64,000 nucleotides of DNA from Archilochus colubris (Eukaryota; Chordata; Aves; Apodiformes; Trochilidae), in contig CM041084.1 in NCBI GenBank assembly GCA_023079485.1, positions 69,225,709 to 69,289,708 on the forward strand, written 5' to 3'. Shown piece by piece: positions 17,301 to 40,320 of the stretch. The position numbers and the translations under genes were made by a program. The stretch's first letter is position 1. Each line of letters begins with the position of its first letter. A model generated the notes under the pieces. That model saw nothing but the letters and a program-made list of their open reading frames with translations, ran no database searches and had not been told where the DNA came from.

Positions 17301-18608
17301 ATAAATCACTGAGTTAATTTAGATTAGGATTACGATAATGGAAACAATTTTCTATATGCCAGCAAAAGCCTTTGGTGGTTATCAATCACTGCCTCCCTAA
17401 CTAGCTGTGTTTTCATAAGTAAAGCACTATGGTATGGGAGCATACATTATTGAAGCCGAGTGGGCTGAAACACATTATTTTCCCAATGTTCCTTTTGTAT
17501 GATTTCTGATGTCAGAATGTTTATCCTAGGTGGGGCTGTCAGTTTGATTATGTAGTATATATGATCAAAGTCTCTTTGTACAAGTAGTGAGCAGATCATT
17601 TTATTAGCTTATTCAGTAAGCAGAGCACCACTCAGCAATAAAATACTGTTCCTCCTGAAGTCCAGAATACAAAGGTGAAATTATTCAACAGCAAGTACAG
17701 GATGGTGACTGCAATGAGAAATCACACACCCTCTTGCACTTGCCTAACAAAGGTGGAAAATGATAGTGACAAAGCCCCTTCTGTGCAGGAGGCCTCAAGG
17801 AAAAAATGGCACACTCTTACATACACCATTTCTGCAATTTATAGTGAGGTTTCTTAAACTATCATGCCTAAACTAAGGCTACTGGAAGAATGGGCTTAGC
17901 TCCTCTGAGCTATTTAAGTGTCTAAGATACTGGTGCTTTGGTAGCACCATGCATTACCCTAGTTGTTATAATATAAATATATAATATAAACATAATATAT
18001 AATATAAATATATAATATAACATAAATATAAAACTAAGTATTATTGTTGTGTTTCTTACAAAATACACAGCATTATTTGTAAGAAGCATACCATTCATAA
18101 CCTTGTATTACAAAGCAGCTCTTTGCCAAAATGTCTCAAGGGAATTTACTGATGGAAACTCCAGTCAATTTAAGTGGAAACTGGTCAATTAATTACATTT
18201 GTTTCCTGCTTCAAGTACCAACAAGTGAAGTTAGGTGAGAAACAAGGTCATAGGAAATAAGGAAAGAGGGTTCTCGAAAAGGGCAGCCAGGAGGTAAAAA
18301 CAGAATGGAACACAAGGAAGACTCAAGGAGCACAATAAAAATATGACCCTCCTTTCATTTTCCTTCCTCTAAAACACAACAATTTTTAATGTGCATAAAA
18401 TGTAAAACAAAAGAGAATGGGTTTGGTTTGTTTTACTAACCTTCACCATCTGAGCCTCTGTATTACCTCTGGCCCCTAAAAGGACCATGGCCAGAGCAGC
18501 AGAGACACTGACAGGAGAGAAGAAAATGTTTCCTGCTGGGTTGGTCTCATGAAACCTTTGGAAGAGATCAAGTGCAAACCTGCTGTTTGCATTACAGAGG
18601 TTCTCCAT
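11391..18608 (-). CDS. SERPINB1: SERPINB1 (leukocyte elastase inhibitor), complete
   Basis: Intracellular clade B serpin that traps neutrophil elastase, cathepsin G and proteinase 3. Six coding exons, read on the minus strand: 18608-18441, 16390-16253, 15373-15256, 14682-14540, 12750-12583 and 11792-11391 (TAA). All have GT/AG borders and join in frame to 378 residues; human SERPINB1 has 379. The start ATG at 18608 gives the usual ov-serpin N-terminus ([16 protein letters not shown]) with no cleavable signal peptide. Hinge [10 protein letters not shown] is canonical for an inhibitory serpin; counting Gly as P15 puts Cys at P1 and Met at P1' (N-F-C-M), as in mammalian SERPINB1. The C-terminus [19 protein letters not shown] is the serpin signature region. 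There is no CD-loop exon. The introns hold an old CR1 (13276-14358), a 38-bp tandem repeat (16961-17036) and an AT-rich microsatellite (17965-18034). Exon 1 is non-coding, upstream. Confidence 0.95.
13276..14358 (-). mobile_element. CR1 LINE fragment in SERPINB1 intron 5
   Basis: Diverged CR1 in minus orientation. It begins on the + strand with the TCACAGAATCAGCATTATTG type of 3' end and continues through ORF2 C-terminal sequence ([19 protein letters not shown] and, further 5', [13 protein letters not shown]). Many stops and frame changes mark it as an old insertion. It lies between the fifth and sixth coding-exon blocks of SERPINB1 without touching the splice sites. Confidence 0.88.
16961..17036. 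repeat. 38-bp tandem repeat, two units
   Basis: Two adjacent, almost identical units starting ACCTTAAAAAGCAAACTTAT at 16961 and 16999. Intronic (SERPINB1 intron between exons 2 and 3). Confidence 0.9.
17965..18034. repeat. AT-rich microsatellite (TATAATATAAATA-like)
   Basis: About 70 bp made of TATAATATAAATA-like units, almost pure A/T and partly self-complementary. It ends about 60 bp before the left boundary of the duplicated segment at 18096. Confidence 0.85.
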
Positions 18609-19899
18609 GGCTGTACCTAAAATATAAAACAGTCAGTAAGGACACCAGGAGATGGTCTTCAAAAATGTAACCTAACCTTATGTGACTCACAGAGTAGTAG
18701 ATAATCTGGTTTCAACTGGGTACAGAAATTATAAGAATTCGATTGTCAGTCTGTCTTCATTAAAAAAAAATAAAATTAAAAAAAAACAACAACCCAGTCA
18801 CATTGAAAAAGTGTGTTTTTTTCCATACACATTGTATATTCCAACCTTTCATTTCACACTAACTTTAAAGACATTATTTTAAAGAAATCTTTGCCTTCTG
18901 CCCTGATATGGGAAGTATGCATGCTGGCAGGACTACAAGTTAAAGTCTTTCTATCTCACAGACCCAGCACACACTAGAGAGCTCACTTATGCAGCTTCCC
19001 TCCCCCCCCCACGCCAACTCTTCTACCCAAACCCTGCACAGAAAACATCCACAGCTCAAGCAGATAGAGACACCTTTCTGCAGGTTGCCCGTCTTCACAA
19101 CTCAAACTGTGCAACAAAAAAATTTTAAGCCCTGCCAAAGGCTTCAGTATGGGCTTACATCCTGCACTGTAAAGCACCAACCTGCTCTGCTGAGAACAAG
19201 TGACCTACCTGCACGCTGCATCCACGTCCAAACGCACCTGAGACCCGAGAGGGCTGAGCAGCCCTCAAGGGGTTTGTGACCTGCAGGTGACAGTACCGGC
19301 TATGGAAGGCAGAACAGACAAAGCTCCAGGGCTGGCACTGCACAGTGCAAGCAGTGATTCATTCTGGTGAGATGCTCCCTAAAACCCCTTGCAGAAGGGT
19401 TGGGTGAAAGGTGTGAGGGGTGGGTCTGGTGCTACAACCTATGCAAAAGCTAGTGGGTTGATGCTGTAAAACTTTCCTGCCCGCTCACCTCAGAATCCTG
19501 CCCCTTTTTGACTGCTTACAGTGGGACGCTTGGGTTTGGCTATTTCCAGCCTGTTTTCTGAAGCAGTTCCCTTTCAGATACAGGCAGCTGTGCACCTACC
19601 CCCAGCAACAGAGGCAGCAGCACAGTTACAAGCCTGCGAGCTACTGTCACAAGTACTGTCCACACCCAACTAAATGGAAGATTTTGCACCATAATTTTGG
19701 TACAGGGATTACAACATAACACCATTTGTTTCCACTGCCTGATGGATAAACGCTCTACAACTTCACAAGGTTTTTTTTATCTAGCGCTATAATAAATAAA
19801 TAAATAAGTAAGCAAACACAAACCCTAACGCACTTTCACTTTCGTTTCATTAAACCACCACTGTTGCAGGCTTCCTCCACTGAAAACTGAGGACTCCCA

Positions 19900-20300
19900 G
19901 CCCGCACAATAAGGCTGCTCGACAGAAGCCCGACGAACCGCGCAGATGCAGCGGCCGCGGAGGAGGGAAGGAAAATCTTCCGCATTTCGTCCCGCTATCA
20001 CCCAATTCCTAAATAAAACACCCAGACAAGGGGTCCCCAGACTTCCTCCTGCCCCATGGAGTTTCAACACAGCCAAGAGCCGCTGCTCTGCCTACCTGAC
20101 CGAGTCGGCGAGGAGAGGTGCTGAGGAGCCGCCAGGCTGGGCGAGGCTAGGGGCGGCCAGCGGGGAGGGGAGCCCGCAACCGGGTCCGCACGGGAGTCCT
20201 GGAGAAGGCTTCGATTTCCCGACGAAGGGAAGGAGGTGGAGGCCTCGGGAGCGAGGTTAAAAACAGACCCTTCCCTCACCAGAGAGAGAGGATTTTAAGG
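19900..20300 (-). promoter_or_regulatory. SERPINB1: Putative SERPINB1 promoter / non-coding exon 1
   Basis: GC- and CpG-rich island in AT-rich surroundings, 1.5 kb upstream of coding exon 2. A good minus-strand donor, CAG|GTAGGCAG, has its last exonic base at 20096 and could end 5' UTR exon 1, joining the acceptor TTTTAG|GTACAGCC just before the ATG. A second candidate donor (GCAG|GTAGGTCA) ends at 19209. The equivalent stretch is missing from duplication copy B. Confidence 0.5.
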
Positions 20301-21153
20301 AAGGAGGAGCTTGGAGGGGGAATGATGTTGTCCAGTGGCTGGAGGTTACCGGGGGCACCCACGCTAACACACCTCTGCCCTCCCACCCAGCTGCGCTATA
20401 TGCACTCAACACGTAGCTCACACTTCTCTTTATTATTTTTAAAGAAAAAGAGAACAACGGAGGATTTCACCTTTGGTTTAACCCCATGGTTTTTATCCAC
20501 CCACCCTCCATCTGGAGGCCCAGAACACTCCCCCTACATCCTGCCCCTTCTAGCTTTGGGGTTCAGAACCAGCCCTTCAGCTGGAGTTCAAAGCAAATAA
20601 ATTGTTAGGTGGGTCTCCCCTCCGCCCTCTAGGTGATGCTTTTATTGTCTTCAGGTGAGTGAGTGTGCACTGCATGAAGCACAGGGCAATCCAGCACCAG
20701 CTGTGCACACAACAACAGGTAAACCTTGGAGTCCTACCCAGAGAAAAAAACCAAACAAACCAAAACTAAACAAACACTTGGCTTCCAAACCCTTTGCTGC
20801 AAGTCCTTGCATGGCCAGCCCCCAAACTTCCCTCCAGCCCCAGTAAGCACCTCCAGTTTTCATTGTTCAGAAAAGCCAATCTTTAACAATGTATTATGAA
20901 CAAGCTGCACACAAACTGACTGTATCTAATCAAGGAATAGTCTTCTTCATTCTACAGATAAAAGCCATGCATAATTTATGGTTGAACACAAGAGGAAGTC
21001 TTAGAGCATTTAGAATTCTTTTATTATTTCAGGTACAGAAGCAGCAAACCAAGTCACTTTACTAGGACAGCTATTCAGCTATGTCTTTGGTATTAACCAC
21101 ACCATTTCAGAAACTATCAATTGGAAAAATACATAATAGAAAAAAATAAAAGC
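20301..21153. other. Intergenic spacer between SERPINB1 and SERPINB6 copy A
   Basis: No gene seen. The sequence is shared with copy B (31020-31830), including a C-rich stretch near 20480-20560. The open frames here are not conserved as proteins. Confidence 0.6.
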
Positions 21154-21862
21154 TTTATTTTCATTTAAATATTGCATAGGCACCATATGCTTTCTCATTA
21201 CACCCCTTGTTAAAGGACTAATAAACTAGGTGACAGGTAACAAACCCAGGTGTCCTGTGGTGAAAAAAAGAATCATCACCACTCGAATACCCTCTAAGGT
21301 CACTGGTACTAAGCCATACTTCCATTACCAATCTTGTCCAAGTGCTTGTGCAGTTATCCAAGAAAGTCTGTCCACTCAGGATGCTTAGCAAGACTTGGAA
21401 CAGGCTGCCAAATACTCCTACCATCTCTCGGGAATGTATTAAGGCATTAAATCAGTGAGTCAGGGGAAAAAAACCAAAGGTAGGTTGCGGGGAAAAGGAA
21501 CAGGGGGAAGGGGACTAAAGATGAGCTCCAGCCTCATCAGGAAAAGAATTAACTTCTTCCTTTCCAGTGAGATGTTATCCAATCTGCTTCTTGGTGGCTA
21601 CAAAAAGGGAAGTGCAATAATATTCCTTGTGTTAGCGAGAAGTTTGAGGCTTCTGCATTGGAGGCACACAGGGCAAGAGCGTTGCTGTACACAGCAGTTG
21701 CTGCCTATGTCCAAGTGGCTGTGTTATTTTATTCAAGCCCTGGATGAAGACTACAGAAGTGGACTCAGGCACAGTTAAGAGAGACAGTGCAAAAAGAGTA
21801 GCCCTATTCTAAAGAAAATCAATGTTGCTGCGTTGGCAGCTCTACTGCCAAACATCTCCTCT
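21154..21862 (-). other. SERPINB6: SERPINB6 copy A 3' UTR with poly(A) signal
   Basis: A minus-strand AATAAA at 21159-21154, about 700 bp after the stop codon, is preserved at the same place in copy B (31837-31832). The open frame on the + strand at 21455-21778 is an antisense shadow. Confidence 0.6.
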
Positions 21863-24800
21863 TCAGGGAGAGCAGTACCTGCCACAGAACAAAATGCTGG
21901 AAGTTTTGTTGTGCCGGATGAAGAAGAGGAAGGGATGATCAGCAGTGAACTCTGGAACAAACATTGCACATTCCAACATCATCACTGCTGCTGTGGCAGC
22001 TGCTGCTTCAGTGCCTTCTTCATTGACTTCCACAAAGGACTTGTGAACTACTTCAGAGAGCCACAGCTCATTGCCAGCTGACATTCCTGAGAAGTCGGCC
22101 TTCTGAGAGTCAAAAGCATCAGGCATTCCCATGCTGCTCAGGAGGGGTTTCAAATCATAGTTTTCTTCTAGTTTAAATCTGGGTAAAGACACCTTCACCT
22201 CTGTAAGGTCCATCATTTCAGGATTGATCCAATCCATCAGCTTGTCATACGTCAGTTCTCTTTGCAGCTAAAGACAAAAATCCAGTTAGAGAATGAGAAT
22301 GAGAAGAGTGTGTAAAATTTATTTACACAACCAAAAGTAGTGAGTGCTGTGGTTTCTTACATGGTGCAGAACAGGCATCTTTTTTTCCCAGGTTGAGAAA
22401 AGTTAAGCCAAAATTATATGTTATACTTCTGATTAGAGACTACAGCCCCAGCTGAGATCAATACCATGTGCTTTTTGGTAGATAGTGTAAGGACCAGTCC
22501 CTTCCATAGAAAGTCTACTTCTATAAAGCCTGCTACATTGGGATGTTTTACATTTTTACAAATGAGAAGTTAAGACACAGAAGAACAGATTACAAATGCC
22601 CAAGGGAACTGAACCCAGCTCGTCTGTGTCTTAACCAAGGGTTCCTCCTTCAGTTTCACAGGCTGAAGAAAACCTCTTCTCACTATGCCCTGTGCAGTCA
22701 GTGTGACAAAGCCTATCAATAGAATACCTTGTCCAGAGCACACAAAAAGTATTTCCTATCTCCACAACAGAAGAGATGCTACACTTCCCTGTCAGTCTGT
22801 TTCCAGGTGATGGGCCAATCTGCCAGCTGCTCAGAACAGAAAATCTTTGGGACAAGATATAGGACTCCATAAGAGCTCTCCCAAATCCCCTCTCACCATA
22901 TATGATGCCCACCATATTGTGCTTTCACCACAATTACAACTGCTGCCAAGGAAAGTCAGGTTTTCCTTCAGAGCCTCAGGCTAAGGAGGCAGCACACAGC
23001 TTGACCAGCAGGGATACAAGGTATGCCAACCATTCTGGGGGCAGAGAGGTGGTTGCTTTATTGGTGATTGAGCAGCAATGACAAAAACTTTGGAACTGAA
23101 CCACAGCTTGATGCAGTCCCAAACTCTCTTCCCTGGAAGCATACAAACTGTCCTTACATTTAGCTCAACAACTTACACTTTCCAAGCCCGTGGAATCATC
23201 CTGGATTGCATCAGGGAGCAAGATGATCATGCTGAGTTCATTACCAACATAAGGGAGCTCAAGGATTTTTGTCTGGAAGTCCCCAATATAGGTCATGTTG
23301 AATTTATCCTTCTTGAACATCATCTGCACAGGTTTGGTCTCTTTCTAAAAATAAGATGTCAACAGTTAGTACTGAGCTAGCATGCTGGTCTCAAAATACA
23401 AAGCAGATACCCAGTTACTGAGGGCTTTTTAGAATTTGACTGCAGAGAACTAAACATACAACAGACCACTGCTCCACCACAGTCTTTTAGAAAGCAAGAG
23501 GTAAGTAAGGACCCCTGAGGTCACAAAGAAAGTGTTCCTAATAAGAGGAGAGGGTATAAGATATTTCATAGAACCTACCCAACATCACTTCGCTTGAATG
23601 ATACTTTTTTCTTCAGAGTTAAATGTATTCACTTCAGAGTACAACTATATCATCAGCATTTTACTACTTCTTACCTTGTTGATTTTAAAAGGCCTTTCTG
23701 TTGTTCTCTCTTTGTCAAAGTGGTTTTCCCACTTGCCCTTGAAATAGATGGCATTCACCAACACAAGTCTGGTCAGAGAACTGATAATCCCCTCCACCAA
23801 CAGATTCTGAATTTTACCTTTAAGAGAAATAGGGAAAAAACAATACCAAACCAAGCAATTTTTAACAGTTTGACATGCATCAAATTATTATCTAATATAA
23901 TGTCTACTCTGTAATTAATACACAATAGATAAGAGAATTAGGTACCAAGCAGAGCAGAACAAGAAATCAATGTTTGAATTCTTTGTTTTTTAATTAACGA
24001 TATTATAATTTTGTCCAAGCCCTGGCTCCCATTAAGTACAAAAGAGAATTCTGCAAAGCACTCACCTTCAGTTCTTTCCTCTACCCAGCCATTGATTTGT
24101 TTTCTGGAATCCTCTGGAGCATTGATGAAGTCAGTCTGTTCTAGTCCAGCCTGGTAGATCTTCTGACTCGACTCTATAAATGACTAAGATGGACATCCCA
24201 AACAGCTTTTCAGACACACTTGTTACTCTCATTCACCCACAGATAAATCTCTAATGCACCAGGAAAATCCACCTGCTTTCTTCCCCCACCTTCATACTGA
24301 GCTAATTAAGTTTTGCCTGACCCATTCCCATCAGGTTTTAAACTGCCTATTTATATTACGAATTGTATGGTAAGTCAAATGGCTTGCTTAGTATGCTAGG
24401 AAGTTCTACATAATAAGAGTAATGACATGGTTATTTTGGGTTGTTGGTTTTTTTTTTCTTCAATGAGAACATACATTTTTGTAATCTTCATTCCATATAA
24501 ATTTCATTCTTAAACTTTCCAGACCAATAGAAAACTTTATATTCAAACGGGAACTGTTTTTTCTTAGATAGACAAATATATTACTGGACCATGGAAGCCT
24601 GAAGGTTTTGTCTGATGGATTTAATAGTGCTTAGCCTGTGATCTGAATGTACAACTGGTGCAATCTAAAAAGAGCTTCTCCAGAAAATTCAAACAGGCTT
24701 TGGCACAATCTATCACATTGGTGATAGGTAGGTATCAGCCTACACCATGTGGAAAGTAAAGCCCAAAGCCTGCCTTTGGCTTCACAAGGAAATAGCTAGC

Positions 24801-26001
24801 AAGTACATTTTGCTAAAAATTTAAGGGTTACTTACAGAAAGAAACTCAAATGTCTTTTCTCCATAAAGGCGGTTAGCAGTCCTCAGTATATATTGGGTAT
24901 TTTGAGCATTAATTTCAGAGAGAAGTGATGGATACTCATTGTGAGCATCTTCAGCTTTCTTCAGAGAAAGCACCTGGAGAAAGAAACATCCTCAGCAGGG
25001 GCCATGCCTTCCATAAACACTTCCTTCAGCTCCATTTTGGGTTTTTTAGTGACTTAGTTCAACAGCTGCGACTTCAAACCAAACAAGTTTTTATCACACC
25101 TCTGAGCTGAAGCTTGTCATGCAACCCAACTACAGTGCACTCAGCCAAATGTTGTACAAACCCTACATTAGGGTACAGAAGAGTCAGCAGCACTGAGTTT
25201 CCTTCATTAAAGCCAAGCATTAGAGGATCACAGAACAGCTGATGCTGGGAAGGAGCTCTGGAGACTGCCTGGTACAATCCCCCTGCTCAAGCATAGACAT
25301 TTACAGCTTGTAATCCAGGACTAAGTCTACATGGATTCTTTAGTATCTCCAAATATGACAGTAATAGAATATAGCTTCAGAGAAACTTTTATGGATTTCA
25401 ATGAAAAAATACATGTGCTCCTCTTTCACTTTGCAACAAAGAGGAAAACAATAATAAAATTACTGCTTCTGCATTTAGTATTGTAAACTGCACATGTAAA
25501 AGATATGCCAGATAGCATTTGCCACCTGAGCAAGTTTTAAAAATTAAACCGAGGTGCAGCTACCATTTTGATATGTAAATAGGTTGCTTTGGTTTGTTTT
25601 GTTTTTTTCTCTTGGCCTGGTTACATTTTCAGAACATGTACAGCCGTTTGGATGAAGTCCACAGAAAACATAATATTTTATGTAGCTAGGGATTCATCAA
25701 ACCTACAAAAAACCCTAGGTACCTCTTCATGACATAATGAAAGAAGATTTCAGTCTCAAGAAAACCCCCAAAACAATACAATTTGTTGCCAATATGGTCC
25801 TAACGTAAACACACCAGGTTTCCTTAGACATACCTTTGCTATCTGGGCTTTGGTGCTACCTTTTGAACCCAGCAAAATCATGGACAAAGCAGAAGAAATA
25901 CTGAAGGGAGAAAAGAATACATTCTGCTTGCTTTTGTTCTCACACAGCTTTCTTAAAAGGTCAAGTGCAAAAGTGGTATTTGCTGCACAGACACTATCCA
26001 T
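21863..26001 (-). CDS. SERPINB6: SERPINB6 copy A, P1 = Glu, complete
   Basis: Clade B serpin, nucleocytoplasmic. Coding exons on the minus strand: 26001-25834, 24973-24836, 24183-24066, 23817-23675, 23344-23177 and 22267-21863 (TGA). They give 379 residues; human SERPINB6 has 376. Every border is GT/AG. The hallmark segments agree with SERPINB6: [86 protein letters not shown]. The hinge is fully inhibitory. With Gly as P15, the loop reads M-M-L-E|C-A-M-F, so P1 is Glu (codon GAA), not the Arg of mammalian SERPINB6 and of copy B. Glu-Cys at P1-P1' resembles human SERPINB9, the granzyme B inhibitor. The other protein differences from copy B are Ser/Asn, His/Gln, Gln/Pro, Phe/Ile and Leu/Val. 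The reading frame is intact. The non-coding exon 1 probably ends at 27083. Confidence 0.94.
25222..25300 (-). mobile_element. Short CR1 remnant (copy A)
   Basis: AGAGGATCACAGAACAGCTG followed by GGAAGGAGCTCTGGAGACTG resembles the CR1 3' end on the minus strand. It is present at the same place in copy B (35893-35972), so it predates the duplication. Confidence 0.5.
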
Positions 26002-27082
26002 GGTTTACAGCCTGCAAGATAAAACACAAAACAAGAACGGATCAGATTTAAATAAAAACTGACACATTATTGCTGCTTTTTATATTTCCAAGCATGAACT
26101 ATGTTGCAAGTGTCATAATTAGGTTTGAAAATTATCAGCTCACTGGAACACTCATTTGGTGAAATAAGTACCTTAAATCCCACACCAGGCCCTTGAGTTA
26201 TTTTAGGAATTTATTGTGTGCTTTCTATAGCAATCTCAAACTTGTAACAGACAGCAATTCTCACCAGTATCACTCGACTCTTCACTAGGTAAATAATTCT
26301 GCATCTTTTTCATATCAGAATACAGGATATTATTTTTTTAGAACTTCTTAAACAAAGTCTCTTTTGACGTCAAAATTTTTTGCCTTTACAGGAAAACAAA
26401 AGAAAAAAACTTAGGCAGCAGATTTATAAAGTCTTACCTTCTCTAAGTCTGTATATCCTCAGGATAACCTTCAGCTTAGCTGTAATAAATAATAGGATGT
26501 TAACTACAGAGAAGTATCACCAGACATCAGAAGATACCAGTTGTTAGGAAAGGTTTCTGAGCTTTAGTCTTAAGGCAGTGCCTAATTTTTATACAGTGCT
26601 ACACAATACAAAACCAACACCCATTTCGTATCGCTAACCCACTATCAAACAAATAGGCGGAAAAACCAAGTTTCTGCATGCATGATTTTCCGCCTAAAAA
26701 AATTTCTTAGGACAGGGAGGAGCCGCAAAAATATGACACTCTCCCCTGCTAAGGGTTTGGCATTCAGCAGGGCGAAAGCTGAGAAAAAGAGCTAAGAGAC
26801 CCTGTCCCGGCCCCGCACTGGGCTTGGCACCGTGGGACATGTCGGAACTCAGCATTTCTCCTGTGCCCCGTCACCATACGCACAGCTCCCGACACACTGC
26901 TGATGCTCCAGCTGACAAGAGGCAGAAATCACGTCACGATAAAAAGGAAAATAAGAATAAAACCCGCGCCATTCTTAAAAAAAATAAACTGAAAAGTCGC
27001 ACACAAAAGGAAAACCCACAAACGCACGCTTTCTGTAGAAAACGACAATTGCAGCATAACAGAGCCACATCCTCGCACTCAC

Positions 27083-27187
27083 CCAGCCGGGTCCTGTCCT
27101 ACCGGGGCCCTTCCCTTTCCCCGGAAGCATCACCGCATTGCTGGCCTGACAGAAAGGGCGGGAGCTCGGCCCCTCCTCAGCCGTGCT
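27083..27187 (-). promoter_or_regulatory. SERPINB6: SERPINB6 copy A exon 1 and truncated promoter
   Basis: GC-rich stretch ending on the minus strand in a strong donor, GGCTGG|GTGAGTGCGAGG (last exonic base 27083), identical in position to copy B (39245). It would splice to TTGCAG|GCTGTAAACC before the ATG. At 27187 the match to the copy B island stops abruptly and jumps to sequence matching 40041 onward, so about 680 bp of upstream promoter flank is missing. Confidence 0.55.
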
Positions 27188-27453
27188 AGGAAGGGATAAA
27201 AGTGCCGTATCACATAGGGGCTGGGGGACAGAGATCCTCCTGGCGGGCTGGTGTGAATGGACTGCAAGGCATTGTGCACTCCCTGCTGCTGTGGCTGGAT
27301 CTCTGAGGTGGGAGAGAAACATAGGAGGAGCTGTGCTTCAGGCCTTGGGATACGTGGTCTGCTGGAGAAAGGATTGCAGCAGGAGTTTCAGGTTTTGGTG
27401 TTTGCATTTGGGCTGACAAGTGCCTCCTGCTCTGCAGGGTAAGGAGTCACTGA

Positions 27454-28702
27454 CTAGGGTGAGCAGAACCTGCCAAAGAAGAGGATGGTTTGTGATTTGT
27501 TGTGTTTGATGAAGAAGAGGAAAGGGTGGTCAGCTTTAAAAGTCATTGTTGGTACTTTTGACCTCAGCATCAGGACACCTGTGGCAGCAGCTGCCTCAGT
27601 ACCTTCTTCATTGACCTCCACAAAAGCTTTGTGAATAACTTTTGAGATGAAAAGCTTCTTCTTAGCTGACATCCCAGTGAAATCAGCCTGAACAGGGTCA
27701 AAAGCATTTTGTATCCCCATGCTGCTCAAAGAGGATTGCAGGTCATAATTCTCCTCCAGCTTCCACTTGGGCAGGTACAGTTGCACTTCAGCTTTCATCA
27801 TGCTGTCTGATTCGGTCCATTCAGCCAGTTTCTCATAAGTCAGCTCTCTTTCAACCTGCAATGAGTGAGATCAGGCTGTCAGTGGCTTACACTCTGTTTC
27901 CTTAAAGTTGGTAAGCTAACAGCCTGAAGTGTTAGAGTAGTTCATTTAATTTCTTTTCTGGTGTGAGGAGTTTTTTGCAATGTGTGATTCGTAATAGAAT
28001 CAGTAGCCACTTGCTCTGTGTGTATATGGATGACTTTTCTCTTAGTAGTGGTAAATAAGTGGAATGCATGGGACCTCAGTTAAAAATAAAAAGATGTTTG
28101 CCTTAACCTGTTCAGAATCTGAAACTAATGCTGTCTTGGTCACGAGTGGCTGCTCATACCTGCTGGATGAGGGTATTCCACACCTAGTTTATGAAATCTC
28201 ATCAAGTACCAGGTGCAAATCCAGACTGCAAATGACATAAAAATGCATTCATACAGCCCTCCAAGGATAACTGTTGGACATGGAGATTCAGGTTTTGTCT
28301 TTGCTCTCATTGTCCCATTCTGTCAATAGAAAAGAGAACACCAAATAGGCTGAAAGTGGGCATACTTTTTAGGTGTATACCTAAGTAAAATACTATGTTT
28401 TCAATGGTATCATATACCCTGAATCCTAAACTGAGAAATTGTGGTTCATGGAACTCTAAAATGATTTTGAAGCTCATTCTTCCTCACTCAGTTCATCTCA
28501 TAGTATGTATGATACAACAGTAGGTCAGTTTTACCAGCTCCAGACCAGTAGCGTTATCACTGATGTCATCTGGTAGGAGAATGAACATGCTGAGGTCATT
28601 TTCTACATATGGCAGTTCAATGATTTTGCATTTCATGGTTGTTTCATGAAGTATCAGAAATGTATCTCTCAGAATCATCATCTGTAGTGGTGCAGTCTTG
28701 GT
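27454..28702 (-). pseudogene. MENT-like serpin, 3' fragment (last two exons only)
   Basis: Two exons in copy A match the end of the complete MENT-like gene: 28702-28535 (168 nt) and 27855-27454 (402 nt, TAG). The last exon differs from the complete gene's by only two residues (Leu/Met after VERE, Gln/Arg in DPVxADF) and keeps the whole reactive loop and C-terminus. The preceding exon has five amino-acid changes in 56 codons. There are no exons for the first 218 residues: upstream lies the duplication joint near 30080 and then an orphan SERPINB1 exon 2. The 3' UTR is cut short by the deletion at 27187, and no AATAAA is visible between the stop codon and SERPINB6 copy A exon 1. A truncated serpin lacking most of the fold cannot inhibit; treat as a partial-duplication pseudogene unless chimeric transcripts are shown. 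Confidence 0.88.
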
Positions 28703-29009
28703 CTCTGAAGAAAAGTCGGACAAGGTGTTACTTGATTTCTTTAAATGCATAATAAAGATTACTCACTTCATTGATAAGATATCTCAGCAGCATTTTCATA
28801 CTCAGTACCCTTTCCAATACTGGTTGTCTACTTTGCCTCTAAATGATATTTTCTGGGACCTGCTTGCCTTTTCCTCTTCCCCAAACTGTAAAGGACAAGA
28901 TTACTAAATTAAATTGGATTATTCAATAGTCTTTTGAACTTCCATGCTATATTATGTTTACAGAGTTTACATCTGCTACCTTTGCAGGTATTTGCAGGAT
29001 TTCTCCTTT

Positions 29010-29940
29010 GAGGAGACATCAGAAGCTGTCTCCATGTCAAGCAGAGCCAGTTCCATCCAGCTCCAAGACAGACCCACCCCTGACCAAAGCTGAGCCTCTA
29101 CAAAGAGTTAGTGTGCAGTTATGGGGGAAGGAAGGGGAGGAGGTGGTCCAGGAGCTGGAGCAGAGATTCCTGTGGTGAAGACCATGATGGTGCAGTCCTC
29201 CACCCTGCAGCAGCCTGTGAAGATCTGCATGCTGGAACACATGGATGTGTCCTGCAGGATGCCCCAGCCCATGGATGTGCCCACGCTAGAGCATGCTTCT
29301 GGCAGGACTGGTGGCTCTCTGAAGAGGAGCCCACTCAGGAGCAGGTTTACAGGCAGGGGTTTTGATCCCATAGGGAACCACCACTATAGCAATCCATTCC
29401 TGAAGGACTGCTCTCCCTGGTAAAGAGCACCCTGGAGCAGTTCTTGAAGAACTGCAGCCCAAGGGAAGGAACCACATTTGATGTGAGAAGGACCGTGTCC
29501 CATGGGTTGGACCCCACACCAGAACAGAGGAAGAGTGTGTGGAGGAAGGAGCTGCAAAGACAGATTTGACCACAACCCCCATTCCTTGTTCCCCTGCTCT
29601 GCTATGGGTGAGTTGGGAGTGAAGTTTCCTTCTTCCTCTGCTATGGGTGAGTTGGGAGTGAAGCTAAGCCTGGGAAGAAGGGAGGAATGGAGGGATGGTG
29701 TTTTATATTTGGTAATATTTCTCATTATCCTACTCTGACTAATTGGCAGTAAACTAAATTAATTTCCATGAGTTGAGTCTGTTTTGCCTGTATTGGGAAT
29801 TGGTAAATGATCTCCCTGTACTTCTCTCAATCTATAATCATTTTGTTATCTTTTTCTCCTCATCTTGCTGAGAAAGGGGCATGATGGAGTGGCTTGGTGG
29901 GCATCTGCCAGCCACTGCCATGTACCAGGTCAGATCCTAA
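29010..29940 (+). mobile_element. Avian ERVL-type LTR remnant (copy A)
   Basis: The segment runs CCAGCTCCAAGACAGACCCA, then CTGCTATGGGTGAGTTGGGA, then TTGAGTCTGTTTTGCCTGTA, and ends with a GGTGGGCATCTGCCAGCCA-like stretch. This succession matches the LTR of a widespread avian endogenous retrovirus group as I remember it. No internal viral genes are seen, so it is best read as a solo LTR. It is present in both duplication copies. Copy A has an extra internal 37-bp duplication near 29604-29663. The open frames inside it are not credible genes. Confidence 0.62.
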
Positions 29941-30077
29941 TGCTGCATATGCAGTGTAGCAGGTTTTGGATTCACAATCATGCCATTGATGCAATCACTT
30001 CATATTGGCTGGTGTACTAATGTGTTTGTGATTATAATCTCTGTCAATCAAGATTTATGCTTCCACTGACAACTGAT

Positions 30078-30083
30078 CTATAT
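30078..30083. other. Tandem duplication junction
   Basis: Sequence up to CAACTGAT (30077) continues the intron of the MENT-like gene as at 43278. From about 30084 it matches the region upstream of SERPINB1 exon 2 as at 18096. A few bases between belong to neither side, and there is no long homology at the joint. Confidence 0.85.
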
Positions 30084-30424
30084 GAATAACCTTGTTATTA
30101 CAAAGCAGCGTTTTGACAAAATGTCTCAATGGAAACTACTGCTGGAAACTCCGGTCAATGTAAGTGGAAACTGGTCAATCAATTACATTTGTTTCCTGCT
30201 TCAAGAACCAACAAGTGAAGTAAGGTGAGAAAGTCACAGGAAATACGGAAAGAGGGTTCTCGAAAAGGGCAGCCAGGAGGCAAGAACAGAATAGAACAGG
30301 AGGAAGACTCAAGGAGCACAATAAAAATATGACCCTCCTTTCATTTTCCTTCCTCTAAAACAACAATTTTTAATGTGCATAAAATGTAAAACAAAAGAGA
30401 ATGGGTTTGGTTTGTTTTACTAAC

Positions 30425-30592
30425 GTTCACCACCTGGGCCTCTGTATTACCTCTGGCCCCTAAAAGGACCATGGCCAGAGCAGCACAGACACTGACAGGA
30501 GAGAAGAAAATGTTTCCTGTTGGGCTGGTCTCATGAAACCTTTGGAAGAGATCAAGTGCGAACCTGCTGTTTGCATTACAGAGGCTCTCCAT
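30425..30592 (-). pseudogene. SERPINB1: Orphan SERPINB1 exon 2
   Basis: A 168-nt exon encoding 56 residues from ATG ([19 protein letters not shown]...) with an intact donor AAC|GTTAGT. It duplicates 18608-18441 with a handful of amino-acid changes. No other SERPINB1 exons follow on the minus strand; the next serpin exons downstream are the two last exons of the truncated MENT-like gene. The region matching the SERPINB1 promoter island is deleted. By itself it cannot make a serpin. Confidence 0.9.
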
Positions 30593-31831
30593 GGTTATAG
30601 CTGAAATATAAAGCAGTCAGTAAGGACAACAGGAAATATTTTTCAAAAACCTAACCTAACCTTATGTGACTCACCAGATAATCTGGTTGCAACTGGGTAC
30701 AGAAACAATAAGAATTCCATTGTCACTCTGTCTTCAATTAAAAAAAAAAATTCACATTGAAAAAGACTATTTTTTCCATAGACATTGTATATTCCTACCT
30801 TTCATTTCACACTAACTTCAAAGACATTCCTTTAAAGAAGTCCTTGCCTTCTACCCTGATATGGGCAGTATGCATGCTGGCAGGATTACAACTTAAAGTT
30901 TTTGCATCTCACAGACCCAGCACACACTAGAGAGCTCACTTACGCAGCTTCCCCCTCAACTCTTCTACCCAAATCCTGCACAGAAAACATCCACTGCTCA
31001 AGGAGATACAGACACCAGACGTTGTCCAGTGGCTGGTGGTCACAGGGGGCACCCAGGCTAACACACCTCTGTCCTCCCCTCCAGCTGCACTATATGCACC
31101 CAACACTTCTCTTTATTGTTTTAAAAGAAAAGGAACACAAAGGAGGATTTCACCTTTGGATTAACCCCATGGTTTTTATCCACCCACCCTCCATCTGGAG
31201 GCCCAGAACACTCCCCCCACATCCTGCCCCTTCTAGCTTTAGGGTTCAGAACCACCTTCAGCTGGAGTTCAAAGCAAATAAATTGTTCGGTGAGTCTCCC
31301 CTTCCCCCTCTAGGTGATGCTTGTATTGTCTCCAGGTGAGTGAGTGTGCACTGCATGAAGCACAGGGCAATCCAGCACCAGCTGTGCACACAACAACAGG
31401 TAGCCTTGGAGTCCTACCCAGAGAAAAAACAAAGAAAAAACTAAAGAACACTTAGCTTCCTTTGCTATAGAGGTTCTTTGCTGCAAGTCCTTGCATGGCC
31501 AGCCCCTAAACTTCCCTCCAGCCCCAGTCAGCACCTCCAGTTTGCAGTTTCAGAAAAGCCAATTGTTAATGTATTATGAACAAGCTGCACTGAGTGTACT
31601 CTTACCAAGGAATAATTCTCTTCTTCATTTTACAGGTTAAAAAATTGCATAATTTATGGTTGAACACAAGAGGAAGTCTTAGAGCATTTAGAATCATTTT
31701 ATTATTTCAGGTACAGAAGCAGCAAACCAAGTCACTTTATTAGGATAGCTACTCAGCTATGTCTTTGGTATTAACCACACCATTTCAGAAACTATCAATT
31801 GGAAAAATACATAATAGAAAAAAATAAAAGC

Positions 31832-32539
31832 TTTATTTTCATTTAAATATTGCATAGGCACCATATGCTTTCTCATTACACCCCTTGTTAAAGGACTAAT
31901 AAACTAGGTGACAGGTAACAAACCCAGGTGTCCTCTGGTGAAAAAAAGAATCATCACCACTCGAATACCCTCTAAAGTCACTGGTACTAAGCCATACTTT
32001 CATTACCAATCTTGTCCAAGTGCTGGTGCAGTTATCCAAGAAAACCTCTCCAGTCAGGATGCTTAGCAAGACTTGGAACAGGCTGCCAAATACTCCTTCC
32101 ATCTCTCAGGAATGTATTAAGGCATTAAATGAGTGAGTCAGGGGAAAAAAACCAAAGGTAGGTTGGGGGGAAAAGGAACAGGGGGAAGGAAATAAAGATG
32201 TGCTCCAGCCTCACCAGGAAAAGAATTAACTTCTTCCTTTCCAGTGAGATGTTATCCAATCTGCTTCTTGGTGGCTACAAAAAGGGAAGTGCAATAATAT
32301 TCCTTGTGTTAGCGAGAAGCTTGAGGCTTCTGCACTGTAGGCACACAGGGCAAGAGTGTTGCTGTAAACAGCAGTTGCTGCCTATGTCCAAGTGGCTGTG
32401 TTATTTTATTCAAGCCCTGGATGAAGACCACAGAAGTGGACTCAGGCACAGTTAAGAGAGACAGTGCAAAAGGAGTAGCCCTATTCTAAAGAAAATCAAT
32501 GTTGCTGCATTGGCAGCTCTACTGCCAAACATCTCCTCT
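31832..32539 (-). other. SERPINB6: SERPINB6 copy B 3' UTR with poly(A) signal
   Basis: Minus-strand AATAAA at 31837-31832, aligned with the one in copy A. The intervening sequence is nearly identical between the copies. Confidence 0.6.
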
Positions 32540-35500
32540 TCAGGGAGAGCAGTACCTGCCACAGAACACAATGCTGGAAGTTTTGTTGTGCCGGATGAAG
32601 AAGAGGAAGGGATGATCAGCAGTGAACTCTGGAACAATCATTGCACAGCGCAACATCATCACTGCTGCTGTGGCAGCTGCTGCTTCAGTGCCTTCTTCAT
32701 TGACTTCCACAAAGGACTTGTGAACTACTTCAGAGAGCCACAGCTCATTGCCAGCTGACATTCCTGAGAAGTCGGCCTTCTGAGAGTCAAAAGCATCAGG
32801 CATTCCCATGCTGCTCAGGAGGGGTTTCAAATCATAGTTTTCTTCCAGTTTAAATCTGGGTAAAGACACCTTCACCTCTGTAAGGTCCATCATTTCAGGA
32901 TTGATCCAATCCATCAGCTTGTCATACGTCAGTTCTCTTTGCAGCTAAAGACAAAAATCCAGTTAGAGAATGAGAATAGTGTGTGAATTTTATTTACACA
33001 GCTGAAAAGTGGTGAGTGCTGTGGTTTCTTACATGGTGCAGAACAGGCATCTTTTTTCCCAGGTTGAGAAAAGTTAAGCCAAAATTACATGTTGTGCTTC
33101 TGATTAGAGATTACAGCCCCAGCTGAGATCAATACCATGTGCTTTTTGGTAGATAAGCGTAAGGACCAGTCCCTTCCATAGAAAGTCTACTTCTATAAAG
33201 CCTGCTACATTGGGATGTTTTACATTTTTACAAATGAGAAGTTAAGACACAGAAGAACAGATTACAAATGCCCAAGGGAACTGAACCCAGCTCATCTGTG
33301 TCTTAACCAAGGGTTCCTCCTTCAGTTTCACAGGCTGAAGAAAACCTCTTCTCACTATGCCCTGTGCAGTCAGTGTGAGAAAGCCTATCAATAGAATACC
33401 TTGTCCAGAGCACACAAAAAGTATTTCCTATCTCCACAACAGAAGAGATGCTACACTTCCCTGTCAGTCTGTTTCCAGGTGATGGGCCAATCTGCCAGCT
33501 GCTCAGAACGGAAAATCTTTGGGACAAGATACAGGACTTCATAAGAGCTCTCCCAAATCCCCTCTCACCATATATGATGCCCACCATACTGTGCTTTCAC
33601 CACAATCACAGCTGCTGCCAAGGAAAGTCAGGTTTTCCTTCAGAGCCTCAGGCTAAGGAGGCAGCACACAGCTTGACCAGCAGGGATACAAGGCATGCCA
33701 ACCATTCTGGGGGCAGAGAGGTGGTTGCTTTATTGGTGATTGAGCAGCAATGACAAAAACTTTGGAACTGAACCACAGCTTGATGCAGTCCCAAACTCTC
33801 TTCCCTGGAAGCATACAAACTGTCCTTACATTTAGCTCAACAACTTACACTTTCCAAGCCTGTGGAATCATCCTGGATTGCATCAGGGAGCAAGATGATC
33901 ATGCTGAGTTCATTACCAACATAAGGGAGCTCAAGGATTTTTGTCTGGAAGTCCCCAATATAGGTCATGTTGAATTTATCCTTCTTGAACATCATCTGCA
34001 CAGGTTTGGTCTCTTTCTAAAAATAAGATGTCAACAGTTAGTACTGAGCTAGGATGCTGGTCTCAAAATACAAAGCAGATACCCAGTTACTGAGGGCTTT
34101 TTAGAATTTGACTACAGAGAACTAAACATACAACAGACCACTGCTCCACCACAGTCTTTTAGAAAGCAAGAGGTAAGTAAGGACCCCTGAGGTCACAAAG
34201 AAAGTGTTCCTAATAAGAGGAGAGGGTATAAGATATTTCATAGAACCTACCCAACATCACTTCACTTGAATGATACTTTTTTCTTCAGAGTTAAATGTAT
34301 TCACTTCAGCATGCAACTGTATCATCAGCATCTTACCTTGTTGATTTTAAAAGGCCTTTCTGTTGTTCTCTCTTTGTCAAATTGGTTTTCCCACTTGCCC
34401 TTGAAATAGATGGCATTCACCAACACAAGTCTGGTCAGAGAATTGATAATCCCCTCCACCAACAGATTCTGAATTTTACCTTTAAGAGACATAGGAAAAA
34501 ATCCAAAACCAAGCCAAGAGATTTTTGACAGTCTGACATGCATCAAATTATTATCTAATCTAATATTTACTCTGTAATGAATACACAATAGATTAGAGAA
34601 TTAGGTACCAAACAGAACAAGAGAACAAGGTTTGATTTGTTTGTTTGTTTTTTAATTAACAATGTTATACCTTGAAACAGCCTTGGTCAAGCCCTGGCTC
34701 CCATTAAGTACAAAAGAGAATTCTGCAAAGCACTCACCTTCAGTTCTTTCCTCTACCCAGCCATTGATTTGTTTTCTGGAATCCTCTGGAGCATTGATGA
34801 AGTCAGTCTGTTCTAGTCCGGCCTGGTAGATCTTCTGACTCGACTCTATAAATGACTAAGATGGACATCCCAAACAGCTTTTCAGACACACTTGTTACTC
34901 TCATTCACCCACAGATAAATCTCTAATGCACCAGGAAAATCCACCTGCTTTCTTCCCCCACCTTCATACTGAGCTAATTAAGTTTTGCCTGACCCATTCC
35001 CATCAGGTTTTAAACTGCCTATTTATATTACGAATTGTATGGTAAGTCAAATGGCTTGCTTAGTATGCTAGGAAGTTCTACATAATAAGAGTAATGACAT
35101 GGTTATTTTGGGTTGTTGGTTTTTTTTTTCTTCAATGAGAACATACATTTTTGTAATCTTCATTCCATATAAATTTCATTCTTAAACTTTCCAGACCAAT
35201 AGAAAACTTTATATTCAAATGGAAACTGGTTTTTCTTAGATAGACAAATATATTACTGGACCATGGAAGCCTGAAGGTTTAGTCTGATGGATTTAATAGT
35301 GCTTAGCCTGTGATCTGAATGTACAACTGGTGCAATCTCAAAGGAGCTCCTCCAGAAAATTCAAACAGGCTTTGGCACAATCTATCACATTGGTTATAGG
35401 TAGGTATCAGCCTACACCATTTGGAAAGTAAAGCCCAAAGCCTACCTTTGGCTTCAGAAGGAAATAGCTAGCAAGTACATTTTGCTAAAAATTTAAGGGT

Positions 35501-36671
35501 TACTTACAGAAAGAAACTCAAATGTCTTTTCTCCATAAAGGCGGTTAGCAGTCCTCAGTATATATTGGGTATTTGGAGCATTAATTTCAGAGAGAAGTGA
35601 TGGATACTCATTGTGAGCATCTTCAGCTTTCTTCAGAGAAAGCACCTGGAGAAAGAAACATCCTCAGCACAGTCAATGCCTTCCATAAACACTTCCTTCA
35701 GCCCCATTTTGGGTTTTTTAATGACTTAGTTCAACAGCTGTGACTTCAAACCAAACAAGTTTTTATCACACCTCTGAGCTGAAGCTTGTCATGCAACTCA
35801 ACTACAGTGCACTCAGCCAAATGTTGTACAAACCCTACATTAGGGTACAGAAGAGTCAGCAGCATTGAGTTTCCTTCATTAAAGCCAAGCATTAGAGGAT
35901 CACAGAACAGCTGATGCTGGGAAGGAGCTCTGGAGACTGCCTGGTACAATCCCCCTGCTCAAGCATAGACATTTACAGCTTGTAATCCAGGACTAAGTCT
36001 ACATGGATTCTTTAGTATCTCCAAATATGACAGTAATAGAATATAGCTTCAGAGAAACGTTTATGGATTTCAGTGGAATAATATATGTGCTCCTCTTTCA
36101 CTTTGCAACAAAGAGGAAATCAATAAAAAAATTACTGCTTCTGCATTTAGTATTGTAAACTGCACATGTAAAAGATATGCCAGATAGCATTTGCCACCTG
36201 AGCAAGTTTTAAAAATTAAACCAAGGTGCAGCCACCACTTTGATATGTAAATAGGTTGCTTTGGTTTGTTTTGTTTTTTTCTCTTGGCCTGGTTACATTT
36301 TCAGAACAGGTAAAGCCTGATATGAAGTCCAAAGAAAACATAATATTTTATGTAGCTAGAGATTCATCAAACCTACAAAAAAACCTAGGTACCTCTTCAT
36401 GACATAATGGAAGAAGATTTCAGCCTCAAGAAAACCCCCAAAACAATACAATTTGTTGTCAATATGTTCCTAACGTAAACACACCAGGTTTCCTTAGACA
36501 TACCTTTGCTATCTGGGCTTTGGTGCTACCTTTTGAACCCAGCAAAATCATGGACAAAGCAGAAGAAATACTAAAGGGAGAAAAGAATACATTCTGCTTG
36601 CTTTTGTTCTCACACAGCTTTCTTAAAAGGTCGAGTGCAAAAGTGGTATTTGCTGCACAGACACTATCCAT
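32540..36671 (-). CDS. SERPINB6: SERPINB6 copy B, P1 = Arg, complete
   Basis: Same six-exon structure as copy A: 36671-36504, 35645-35508, 34855-34738, 34479-34337, 34016-33849 and 32944-32540 (TGA), 379 residues, all GT/AG. The loop reads M-M-L-R|C-A-M-I, with P1 Arg (codon CGC) and P1' Cys. This agrees with mammalian SERPINB6, whose P1 Arg targets trypsin-like proteases; known mammalian targets include thrombin, plasmin and cathepsin G. This copy therefore looks like the ancestral-function gene. It also keeps the full GC-rich upstream region around exon 1 (last exonic base 39245). The protein differs from copy A at only six positions, two of them in the reactive loop. Confidence 0.95.
35893..35972 (-). 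mobile_element. Short CR1 remnant (copy B)
   Basis: Counterpart of the remnant at 25222-25300, nearly identical in sequence and at the same offset in the SERPINB6 intron. Confidence 0.5.
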
Positions 36672-39066: not shown

Positions 39067-39092
39067 AAAAAAAAAAAAAAAAAAAAAAAAAA
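39067..39092. repeat. A26 homopolymer in SERPINB6 copy B intron 1
   Basis: Run of 26 A on the + strand, about 150 bp downstream (in the direction of transcription) of the putative exon 1 donor. The copy A equivalent (26938-26990) is an interrupted A-rich stretch. Confidence 0.85.
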
Positions 39093-39244
39093 GAAAATAA
39101 TAAGAAAAGCTACGCCATGCACCCTCTGCTTCTTAAAAAACCCAAACAAACGGAAAAGTCGCACACAAAAGAAAGATACACGAACGCACTCTTTCTGTAG
39201 AAAACGACACCTGCAGAATAGCGGAGCCGTAGCCTCCCACTCAC

Positions 39245-39560
39245 CCAGCCGGGCGCCGCGGTCGCGGTCCCGGTCCTCCCAGGGCCCTTCCCTTTCCCCG
39301 GAAGCATTGCCGCATGCCCGGGCTGAGGGACGGGGCGGGAGCTCGGCCCCTCCTCAGCCGCGCCCCGGACTTCAGCCCTCGGCCAACGGCCATTTGGGCT
39401 TCGGCACGGGGATGCGCCGTAGCCCCCGCACAAAATGGCCGCCGCCCACCATCGCAGTACGAGCCTCTGAGGCTTTCCCACCAACCCTTCATACCTCCGC
39501 TGGCCTCGGGTCACCACAGACGGTGATTTTCCAGCTCTGTCTCCCCCTTGTGGCAGAGCT
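39245..39560 (-). promoter_or_regulatory. SERPINB6: SERPINB6 copy B exon 1 and CpG-rich promoter
   Basis: Strongly GC- and CpG-rich island. On the minus strand it ends in the donor CGGCTGG|GTGAGTGGGAGG (last exonic base 39245). Upstream there is a GGGCGG-type box (39332-39340 area) and CAAAATGGCCGCCGCC at about 39430, which resembles a YY1-type element. Most of this upstream half (from 39364) is absent in copy A. The transcription start is not determinable from sequence alone. Confidence 0.6.
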
Positions 39561-39752
39561 GACATAAAACACCACCGTGACGGGCTATTCTTACAGCCCC
39601 TATTCTTATTCTGATAATTACGTTTGAAGCAGGCATTGCCTTGAACAGCAGGGAGGTGTTGCTGTAGATGAGACCATACGGCCTCGGCCCTTTCTCACGT
39701 AACCTAAAAGTCTGAGTGAGGCAGATAGCCCTCAGAGAGGTGTATCTTTTAC

Positions 39753-40320
39753 TTTATTGGGTATTTCTTTTTTAAAGGAATTGGTGCATTGATGTGAACC
39801 CAATTGAAGAAAAAAGTGGGAGCTGCTGAAGTCTTGCAGTTGGGATGAGGAAGGCAGGCAAGGCGTTGGTCACAGGCTGTGGATAGGGAACGTGTGCTTC
39901 AATTTACAATGCAAGGACATAATCAGGGTGCTAAAAAGAAGGAAGGTGAAACTGCAGCAGACTGGAAGTAAGTGCTAGAGTGAGTGCTAACACTATATGT
40001 GAAGCAGGGGCTCTTGTTACTGTACATTACTACACACCACTGTGAAGGGAAGGGATGGAAATGCCATATCAAACATGGGCTGGGGGACAGAGATCCTCCT
40101 GACGGGCTGGTGTGAATGGCAATCAGGACTGCAAGGCATTGTGCACACCCTGCTGCTGTGGCTGGATCTCTGAGGTGGGAGAGAGACATAGGAGGAGCTG
40201 TGCTTCAGGTCTTGGGATACATGATCTGCTGGAGAAAGGATTGCAGCAGGAGTTTCAGGTTTTGGTGTTTGCATTTGAGCTAACAAGTGCCTCCTGCTCG
40301 GCAGGGTAAGGAGTCACTGA
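39753..40320 (-). other. MENT-like serpin 3' UTR with poly(A) signal
   Basis: Minus-strand AATAAA at 39758-39753, about 560 bp after the stop codon and about 190 bp before the SERPINB6 copy B promoter island. The segment holding this signal is deleted from copy A. Confidence 0.5.

What the first reader, a model, noticed from the sequence alone, without database searches (positions are those of the whole stretch)
21935..22000. SERPINB6 copy A has swapped its P1 residue from Arg to Glu, giving a SERPINB9-like reactive centre
The last exons of the two SERPINB6 copies (405 nt) differ at only 6 bases, and 4 of these fall within 11 bp at the scissile bond. The P1 codon is CGC (Arg) in copy B and GAA (Glu) in copy A, so all three bases differ; P4' is ATT (Ile) versus TTT (Phe). 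Human SERPINB6 has P1 Arg-Cys, so Arg is probably ancestral. Human SERPINB9, the granzyme B inhibitor, has P1 Glu followed by Cys, the same pair as copy A. Three hits in one codon in an otherwise near-identical exon are hard to explain by drift. Inference: copy A has been reshaped by selection towards proteases that cut after acidic residues (granzyme B-like or caspase-like), and may fill a SERPINB9-like role in this bird. The frame, hinge and splice sites are intact, so it is likely functional.
Basis: partly seen in the sequence, partly recalled or inferred. Interest (0 to 1): 0.93.

Follow-up and report, generated by a model that had tools for sequence, protein, structure and literature searches.

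The report
Bird SERPINB6 copy with switched bait
A bird, probably a hummingbird, carries two neighbouring copies of a protease-inhibitor gene, and in one of them the residue that decides which protease is trapped has changed from arginine to glutamate, a mild example of a bait-loop diversification that is much stronger in several perching birds.

Summary
Two intact 379-aa SERPINB6 genes lie in tandem; their last exons differ at 6 of 405 bases, four of them within 13 bp (not 11) at the scissile bond: P1 GAA (Glu, copy A) versus CGC (Arg, copy B), P4' Phe versus Ile. Outgroups settle the direction: swifts, ratites and reptiles have Arg-Cys, so Glu is derived.

Two inferences weaken. (1) Near-identity does not mean youth: parts of the duplicated unit differ by 8-12%, the noncoding core by 3.2%, which points to gene conversion. 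Clusters of mismatches like this one also occur in that noncoding core, so clustering alone is weak evidence of selection. (2) A granzyme B role is unlikely: papers report that birds seem to have lost granzyme B and that chicken has no SERPINB9.

Context raises interest. In 21 bird species (20 perching birds) with two or more SERPINB6 models, same-species pairs differ at 49% of 12 loop residues and 4.5% elsewhere. Counting from the hinge, no bird protein listed has an acidic P1; two gar serpins do.

Best reading: a working inhibitor retargeted to proteases that cut after acidic residues; target unknown, selection suggested but not shown.

The parts
21863..26001 (-). SERPINB6 copy A, coding exons 26001-25834, 24973-24836, 24183-24066, 23817-23675, 23344-23177, 22267-21863; 379 aa
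   Evidence: splice borders and open frame; Pfam serpin PF00079 E 5.2e-135
21992..22021 (-). hinge of the reactive centre loop, residues 328-337 [10 protein letters not shown] (P17-P8), identical in copy B
   Evidence: translation; P numbering by my count from human SERPINB6 P1 Arg
21956..21991 (-). variable loop segment of copy A, residues 338-349 (P7-P5'): [12 protein letters not shown]
21971..21973 (-). P1 codon of copy A, GAA (Glu), all three bases differ from copy B
21959..21961 (-). P4' codon of copy A, TTT (Phe)
32540..36671 (-). SERPINB6 copy B, coding exons 36671-36504, 35645-35508, 34855-34738, 34479-34337, 34016-33849, 32944-32540; 379 aa
32648..32650 (-). P1 codon of copy B, CGC (Arg)
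18097..30077 (.). left unit of the tandem duplication
   Evidence: self-alignment
30086..43278 (.). right unit of the tandem duplication
   Evidence: self-alignment
27457..30592 (-). serpin fragments made by the duplication: a SERPINB1-type first coding exon (30592-30404) beside late exons of the 50436-40324 serpin gene (28708-28556, 27855-27457)
   Evidence: tblastn with a recalled human SERPINB6 guide

Best explanation
Copy A is a working SERPINB6-type serpin whose bait residue has changed from the ancestral Arg to Glu. Shown: two intact tandem genes with constrained coding sequence; a divergence mosaic along the duplicated unit that fits an older duplication homogenised by gene conversion in its core; Glu is the derived state. 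Inferred: like other inhibitory serpins, copy A offers its loop as a substrate, is cut after P1 and traps the protease as the loop inserts into sheet A. With Glu at P1 it would trap proteases that cut after acidic residues and give up the Arg-directed targets that copy B keeps. As granzyme B is reported lost in birds, the likelier targets are an inflammatory caspase, another acid-cutting granule protease, or a microbial Glu-directed protease. The change fits a wider bird pattern in which SERPINB6 paralogues share a framework and diversify the loop, which suggests selection but does not prove it.
For: Intact genes and hinge. Coding outside the loop 9/1104 against 124/3836 in the noncoding core, P = 1.4e-6; loop 4/36 against 9/1104, P = 0.0005, and against the noncoding core P = 0.03. 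Outgroups with Arg-Cys. Mosaic divergence 8.3%, 12.3% and 9.6% in three stretches against 3.2% in the noncoding core, longest identical run 399 bp against a shuffle 99.9th percentile of 245. Loop diversification in other birds: 48.8% loop against 4.5% framework in 68 same-species pairs. A changed loop, LTSFAMI, in the hummingbird Heliangelus. Human SERPINB9 shows that a P1 Glu can direct a clade B serpin to acid-cutting proteases (PMC11222584, passages).
Against: Counted as two events, the loop excess is P = 0.045 against the rest of the coding sequence and P = 0.33 against the noncoding core. Similar mismatch clusters occur in the noncoding core. The shuffle behind the conversion claim ignores local mutation-rate differences. 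No expression, protein or population data; no bird protease that cuts after Glu is identified here.
Confidence: 0.55

Rival explanations
1. Relaxed constraint. Copy B keeps the ancestral job, so copy A's loop drifted; the P1 codon arose by one multinucleotide mutation plus one or two other changes, and copy A has no special new target.
For: Triple mismatches at 24008 and 25649 and six clusters in the noncoding core; loop excess not significant against the noncoding core when counted as two events; ignoring multinucleotide changes is known to bias tests toward selection (PMC10336034, abstract). Arg to Glu can be made through Gln with two replacement steps and one silent step.
Against: The rest of the coding sequence of the pair is constrained, the frame and hinge are intact, and loop change without framework change recurs in 16 of 21 bird species examined.
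Confidence: 0.28
2. One reading: copy A was shaped by selection into a SERPINB9-like inhibitor of granzyme B in this bird.
For: Same P1-P1' pair, Glu-Cys; human SERPINB9 owes its rate against granzyme B mainly to P1 Glu (PMC11222584, passages).
Against: Granzyme B seems lost in birds (PMC8537139, passages); the bird genes of the related locus fall in a branch described as tryptase-like (PMC4646688, passages). Copy A has Cys-Ala at P1'-P2', not the conserved cysteine pair described for the SERPINB9 loop. P4' is Phe, the human SERPINB6 state; that P4' matters for granzyme B I know from a reference title only (seen), and its acidic preference is recalled.
Confidence: 0.07
3. Assembly or consensus error at the P1 codon of one copy.
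For: The copies are nearly identical in places, which makes misassembly possible; no reads were available.
Against: The change keeps the frame and sits at the residue that sets specificity; the copies carry many private differences around it; the window has no N; a related hummingbird also has an altered loop.
Confidence: 0.05

Closest known systems
Human SERPINB9 (PI-9)
   Same: Clade B serpin with Glu at P1; Cys at P1' (the Cys position is recalled; the P1 Glu is from PMC11222584)
   Different: Separate gene; cysteine pair in the loop against Cys-Ala here; its main target, granzyme B, seems lost in birds (PMC8537139)
Bird SERPINB6 with the ancestral loop (for example treeswift P0004, swift P0005)
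   Same: Framework 88-89% identical to copy A, same length
   Different: P1 Arg
Perching-bird SERPINB6-like paralogues with diversified loops (for example manakins, tits, sparrows)
   Same: Same-species copies share the framework and differ in the loop
   Different: 5 to 13 of 12-14 loop residues differ in most such pairs, against 2 of 12 here; none listed has an acidic P1 by counting from the hinge, though some have Glu at P2 or P3 (P0112, P0116, P0166, P0172; P0106)
Rodent SERPINA1 and SERPINA3 arrays (PMC12646145, passages)
   Same: Tandem duplication, selection concentrated in the loop, new protease targets
   Different: Clade A, secreted (recalled), rodents; there selection and function were tested
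Mouse Serpinb6a-e and Serpinb9 expansions (PMC3880077, passages)
   Same: Tandem clade B expansion of the same gene
   Different: Independent, in rodents; loops not compared here
Gar leukocyte elastase inhibitor-like proteins P0132 and P0161
   Same: Acidic P1 before Cys-Ala: LECAR and VDCAM
   Different: Fish genes; independent origin is inferred, no tree was built

Membership tests
Serpin superfamily | serpin domain over the whole protein | tested here: met
   PF00079, residues 7-379, 450.9 bits against a cut-off of 27
Inhibitory serpin | conserved hinge with Gly at P15, Thr at P14 and small residues at P12-P9 | tested here: met
   [10 protein letters not shown] in both copies; the consensus is recalled
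Inhibitory serpin | forms a stable complex with a protease | not testable with these tools
   needs protein
SERPINB6 | nearest relatives are SERPINB6 | tested here: met
   copy A matches Heliangelus serpin B6-like 96%, other bird serpin B6 entries in the upper 70s to 80s percent; differs from copy B at 6 of 379 residues
SERPINB6 | P1 Arg followed by Cys | tested here: not met
   copy A has Glu-Cys, copy B has Arg-Cys; so copy A is a SERPINB6 paralogue by descent with a changed bait
SERPINB9 | P1 Glu | tested here: met
   SERPINB9 P1 Glu from PMC11222584
SERPINB9 | conserved cysteine pair in the loop | tested here: not met
   Cys-Ala after P1; cysteine pair from PMC11222584
SERPINB9 | common descent with SERPINB9 | tested here: not met
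   copy A is a tandem duplicate of a bird SERPINB6; judged by nearest matches and duplication, no tree built
SERPINB9 | inhibits granzyme B | not testable with these tools
   needs protein; granzyme B reported as seemingly lost in birds (PMC8537139)
Serpin array with a diversified loop | same-species copies differ far more in the loop than in the framework | tested here: inconclusive
   for the window pair 2 of 12 loop residues against 4 of 367 elsewhere, but only two loop events; clear in 16 of 21 other bird species
Serpin array with a diversified loop | positive selection on loop codons | not tested
   no DNA of other birds at hand

The most novel reading that the evidence does not exclude
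Bird SERPINB6 is a diversifying inhibitor repertoire: gene conversion keeps the framework uniform while the 12 or so residues around the scissile bond are repeatedly replaced, and copy A is a product of this that independently reached an acidic bait in a lineage reported to lack SERPINB9 and granzyme B. In some perching birds, models that share long identical N-terminal parts and differ in the last exon raise the further possibility that the loop exon is swapped by splicing.
Probability: 0.4. Interest if true: 0.72.

Novelty: new variant of a known kind. Interest (0 to 1): 0.5.

Why it matters
If true, it gives a natural pair for the study of protease specificity: two inhibitors that differ at six residues, two of them in the loop, with opposite charge at P1. 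It asks which protease a bird needs to block after acidic residues when granzyme B is gone. And it points to bird SERPINB6 as a clade B counterpart of the rodent serpin arrays; I found no account of that in the open-access papers searched (with the terms used there).

Tried and rejected
Recent duplication as the reason for the near-identity: rejected, because three stretches of the same unit differ by 8-12%. Against a simple picture, two other stretches outside the SERPINB6 genes are as low as 2.5-2.8%.

Template elsewhere in the window for the copy A loop: a 24-nt pattern with up to 3 mismatches found copy A only. Templates outside the window could not be searched.

A strong claim from clustering: tempered after the noncoding control and after counting two events in place of four bases.

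General hypermutation of the loop in this duplication: the last exons of the neighbouring duplicated serpin differ at 4 of 402 bases, none in the loop, so the loop change is particular to SERPINB6.

Orthology of the Heliangelus protein to A or B: it differs from each at 15 residues, so it was not assigned.

Branch-site test: not run. The window's own genome did not complete, so the copy number beyond the window is unknown. NCBIfam gave no family, as may be expected of a library made for prokaryotes. MENT or SERPINB10 identity of the neighbouring genes is a guess by eye.

Full report
What is there. The window carries a run of clade B serpin genes on the minus strand: SERPINB1 (18608 to 11394), SERPINB6 copy A (26001 to 21863), serpin fragments between about 30.6 and 27.5 kb, SERPINB6 copy B (36671 to 32540), another serpin gene (50436 to 40324, SERPINB10 or MENT-like by guess) and part of a further one with a MENT-like last exon (62977 to 58831). 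The guide for exon finding was a recalled human SERPINB6 protein. Copies A and B each have six coding exons and encode 379 residues. The closest full-length bird protein is a serpin B6-like protein of Heliangelus exortis, a hummingbird, at 96%; treeswift and swift follow at 89% and 88%. The window is therefore probably from a hummingbird; this is an inference.

The observation. The last exons differ at 6 of 405 positions; four of the six lie at 21961, 21971, 21972 and 21973, a span of 13 bp. P1 is Glu (GAA) in A and Arg (CGC) in B; P4' is Phe in A and Ile in B. Over 1140 coding bases there are 13 differences; 9 lie outside the P1 and P4' codons, 5 silent and 4 changing a residue.

Which state is old. 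In the 118 bird relatives aligned (120 listed, the fused models P0001 and P0093, from a snake and a frog, dropped) the residue aligned to 344 is Arg in 78, Cys in 11, Gly in 9, Lys in 6, Ser in 5, Thr, Ala and Leu in 2 each; the call did not print the last 3. Arg-Cys is found in ostrich, kiwi, rhea, alligator, turtles, geckos, axolotl and human, and in catshark and other cartilaginous-fish proteins that are named leukocyte elastase inhibitor-like. At 348 the birds have Ile in 89 of 118. Arg and Ile are thus the old bird states and copy A is the changed copy; Phe at 348 also occurs in human and axolotl. Of the other replacements, S154 and H174 look derived in A and V371 in B; Q80 is shared by A and Heliangelus.

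How old is the pair. Self-alignment shows a tandem duplication, 18097-30077 and 30086-43278. Divergence is a mosaic: 8.3% below 21000, 3.4% in 21000-21862, 1.1% in coding exons, 3.2% in introns, 12.3% in 26002-27200, 2.8% in 27201-27855, 9.6% in 27856-28990 and 2.5% in 28991-30080. The longest identical run is 399 bp, mostly intron, against a 99.9th percentile of 245 bp when mismatches are shuffled over the unit. That shuffle ignores local mutation-rate differences, so conversion is likely, not proven. The near-identity of the two genes is therefore no sign of youth, and the P1 difference may be older than the last conversion or have been spared by it.

Is it selection. Scattering 6 differences evenly gives P about 0.001, but the noncoding core is itself clustered: 6 distinct four-in-13-bp clusters and 2 triple mismatches in 3836 bases. 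Among the 482 overlapping noncoding blocks as poor in mismatches as the exon, 2.1% hold such a cluster; among all 3431 blocks, 52% do. The loop (codons 338-349) has 4 of 36 bases changed, against 9 of 1104 in the rest of the coding sequence (P = 0.0005) and 124 of 3836 in the noncoding core (P = 0.03); counted as two events these become P = 0.045 and P = 0.33. The rest of the coding sequence is constrained relative to the noncoding core (P = 1.4e-6). So the proteins are kept, the loop of the pair is freer, and positive selection is suggested but not shown by this pair. The P1 codon needs three base changes; through CGA and CAA these are one silent and two replacement steps. A GC to AA double change, which I recall as a known mutational signature, would shorten the path. 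The neighbouring duplicated serpin last exon differs at 4 of 402 bases, none of them in its loop.

The wider pattern. The three protein searches (each lists only its best 120) gave 176 proteins. For 21 bird species with two or more listed models, 20 of them perching birds and one a mesite, I compared all 68 same-species pairs: loop residues 338-349 differ at 48.8% (gaps counted), the rest at 4.5% (gapped columns left out); 50 pairs in 16 species have two or more loop differences, and 5 species (Empidonax, Mesitornis, Agelaius, Molothrus, Cyanoderma) have no such pair. Averaged over the 68 pairs, the most divergent 12-residue window of the protein starts at residue 338 (5.6 differences, median window 0.44); the top window lies at residues 332-354 in 44 of 68 pairs and elsewhere in 24. 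Between proteins chosen for the ancestral motif (75, so 2775 pairs) the loop differs at 19% and the rest at 14%; choosing by the motif biases that loop figure low. The groups were put together by hand from the names listed; some members are annotated isoforms or gene models, not proven separate genes, and the Buceros and Melopsittacus pairs and one partial Pipra model were left out. Heliangelus has a loop LTSFAMI with one extra residue. This looks like repeated loop replacement on a shared framework, as in rodent SERPINA arrays (PMC12646145, passages). Paper searches for an account of this in birds found none in the open-access library.

Acidic P1. Of 174 readable loops (2 of 176 unreadable), counted from the hinge, two have an acidic P1, both gar proteins: LECAR in P0132 and VDCAM in P0161. 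No bird row does. In several sparrows with lengthened loops a Glu stands at P2 (P0112, P0116, P0166, P0172), and in P0106 at P3; where the loop length has changed the true scissile bond is uncertain, so an acidic bait in those birds is not excluded. The database is clustered at 90% identity, so close variants may be hidden; the Heliangelus entry stands for six sequences.

What it may block. Human SERPINB9 owes its rate against granzyme B mainly to P1 Glu and also acts on caspase-1, while its effect on caspases 8 and 10 is called unpersuasive; mouse Serpinb9, with P1 Cys, still inhibits mouse granzyme B, more slowly (PMC11222584, passages). But granzyme B and the classical chymase locus seem lost in birds (PMC8537139, passages), the bird genes of a related locus fall in a branch described as tryptase-like (PMC4646688, passages), and the ten clade B serpins listed for chicken include SERPINB1 and SERPINB6 but not SERPINB9 (PMC1308813, passages). 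Caspase-1 is active in birds and drives gasdermin A there (PMC10948149, passages), which makes it one reasonable candidate; a microbial Glu-directed protease is another. Both are inference.

Verdict. A true and well-placed observation; its evolutionary argument needs repair and its granzyme B target is unlikely. It is a mild instance of loop diversification in bird SERPINB6.

Noticed in passing
window 30592-30404 and 28708-27457 (-): The duplication junction near 30.08 kb puts a SERPINB1-type first coding exon upstream of late exons of another serpin gene, all in one orientation. The last exon of the fragment is open and differs from its full-length counterpart at only 4 of 402 bases. Whether a chimeric transcript exists is unknown.
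   Followed up: partly
proteins P0053 and P0088 (Cyanistes caeruleus); P0061 and P0071 (Manacus candei): Same-species models share long identical N-terminal parts (255 and 210 residues) and differ in the rest, including the loop. This could be alternative use of tandem last exons, as in insect serpins, or chimeric gene models.
   Followed up: partly
proteins P0132 (Lepisosteus oculatus) and P0161 (Atractosteus spatula): Gar serpins have Glu or Asp at P1 before Cys-Ala, a likely independent gain of an acidic bait.
   Followed up: no
window 5621-6288, 13357-13917, 46941-47726, 53411-54078, 56201-57038: A dispersed repeat family in both orientations, pairs 74-93% alike; probably a retroelement by guess, not searched.
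   Followed up: no
window 23828-24015 against copy B: An island of about 11% divergence inside the low-divergence core, next to a 399-bp identical run; it looks like a gap between conversion tracts.
   Followed up: no
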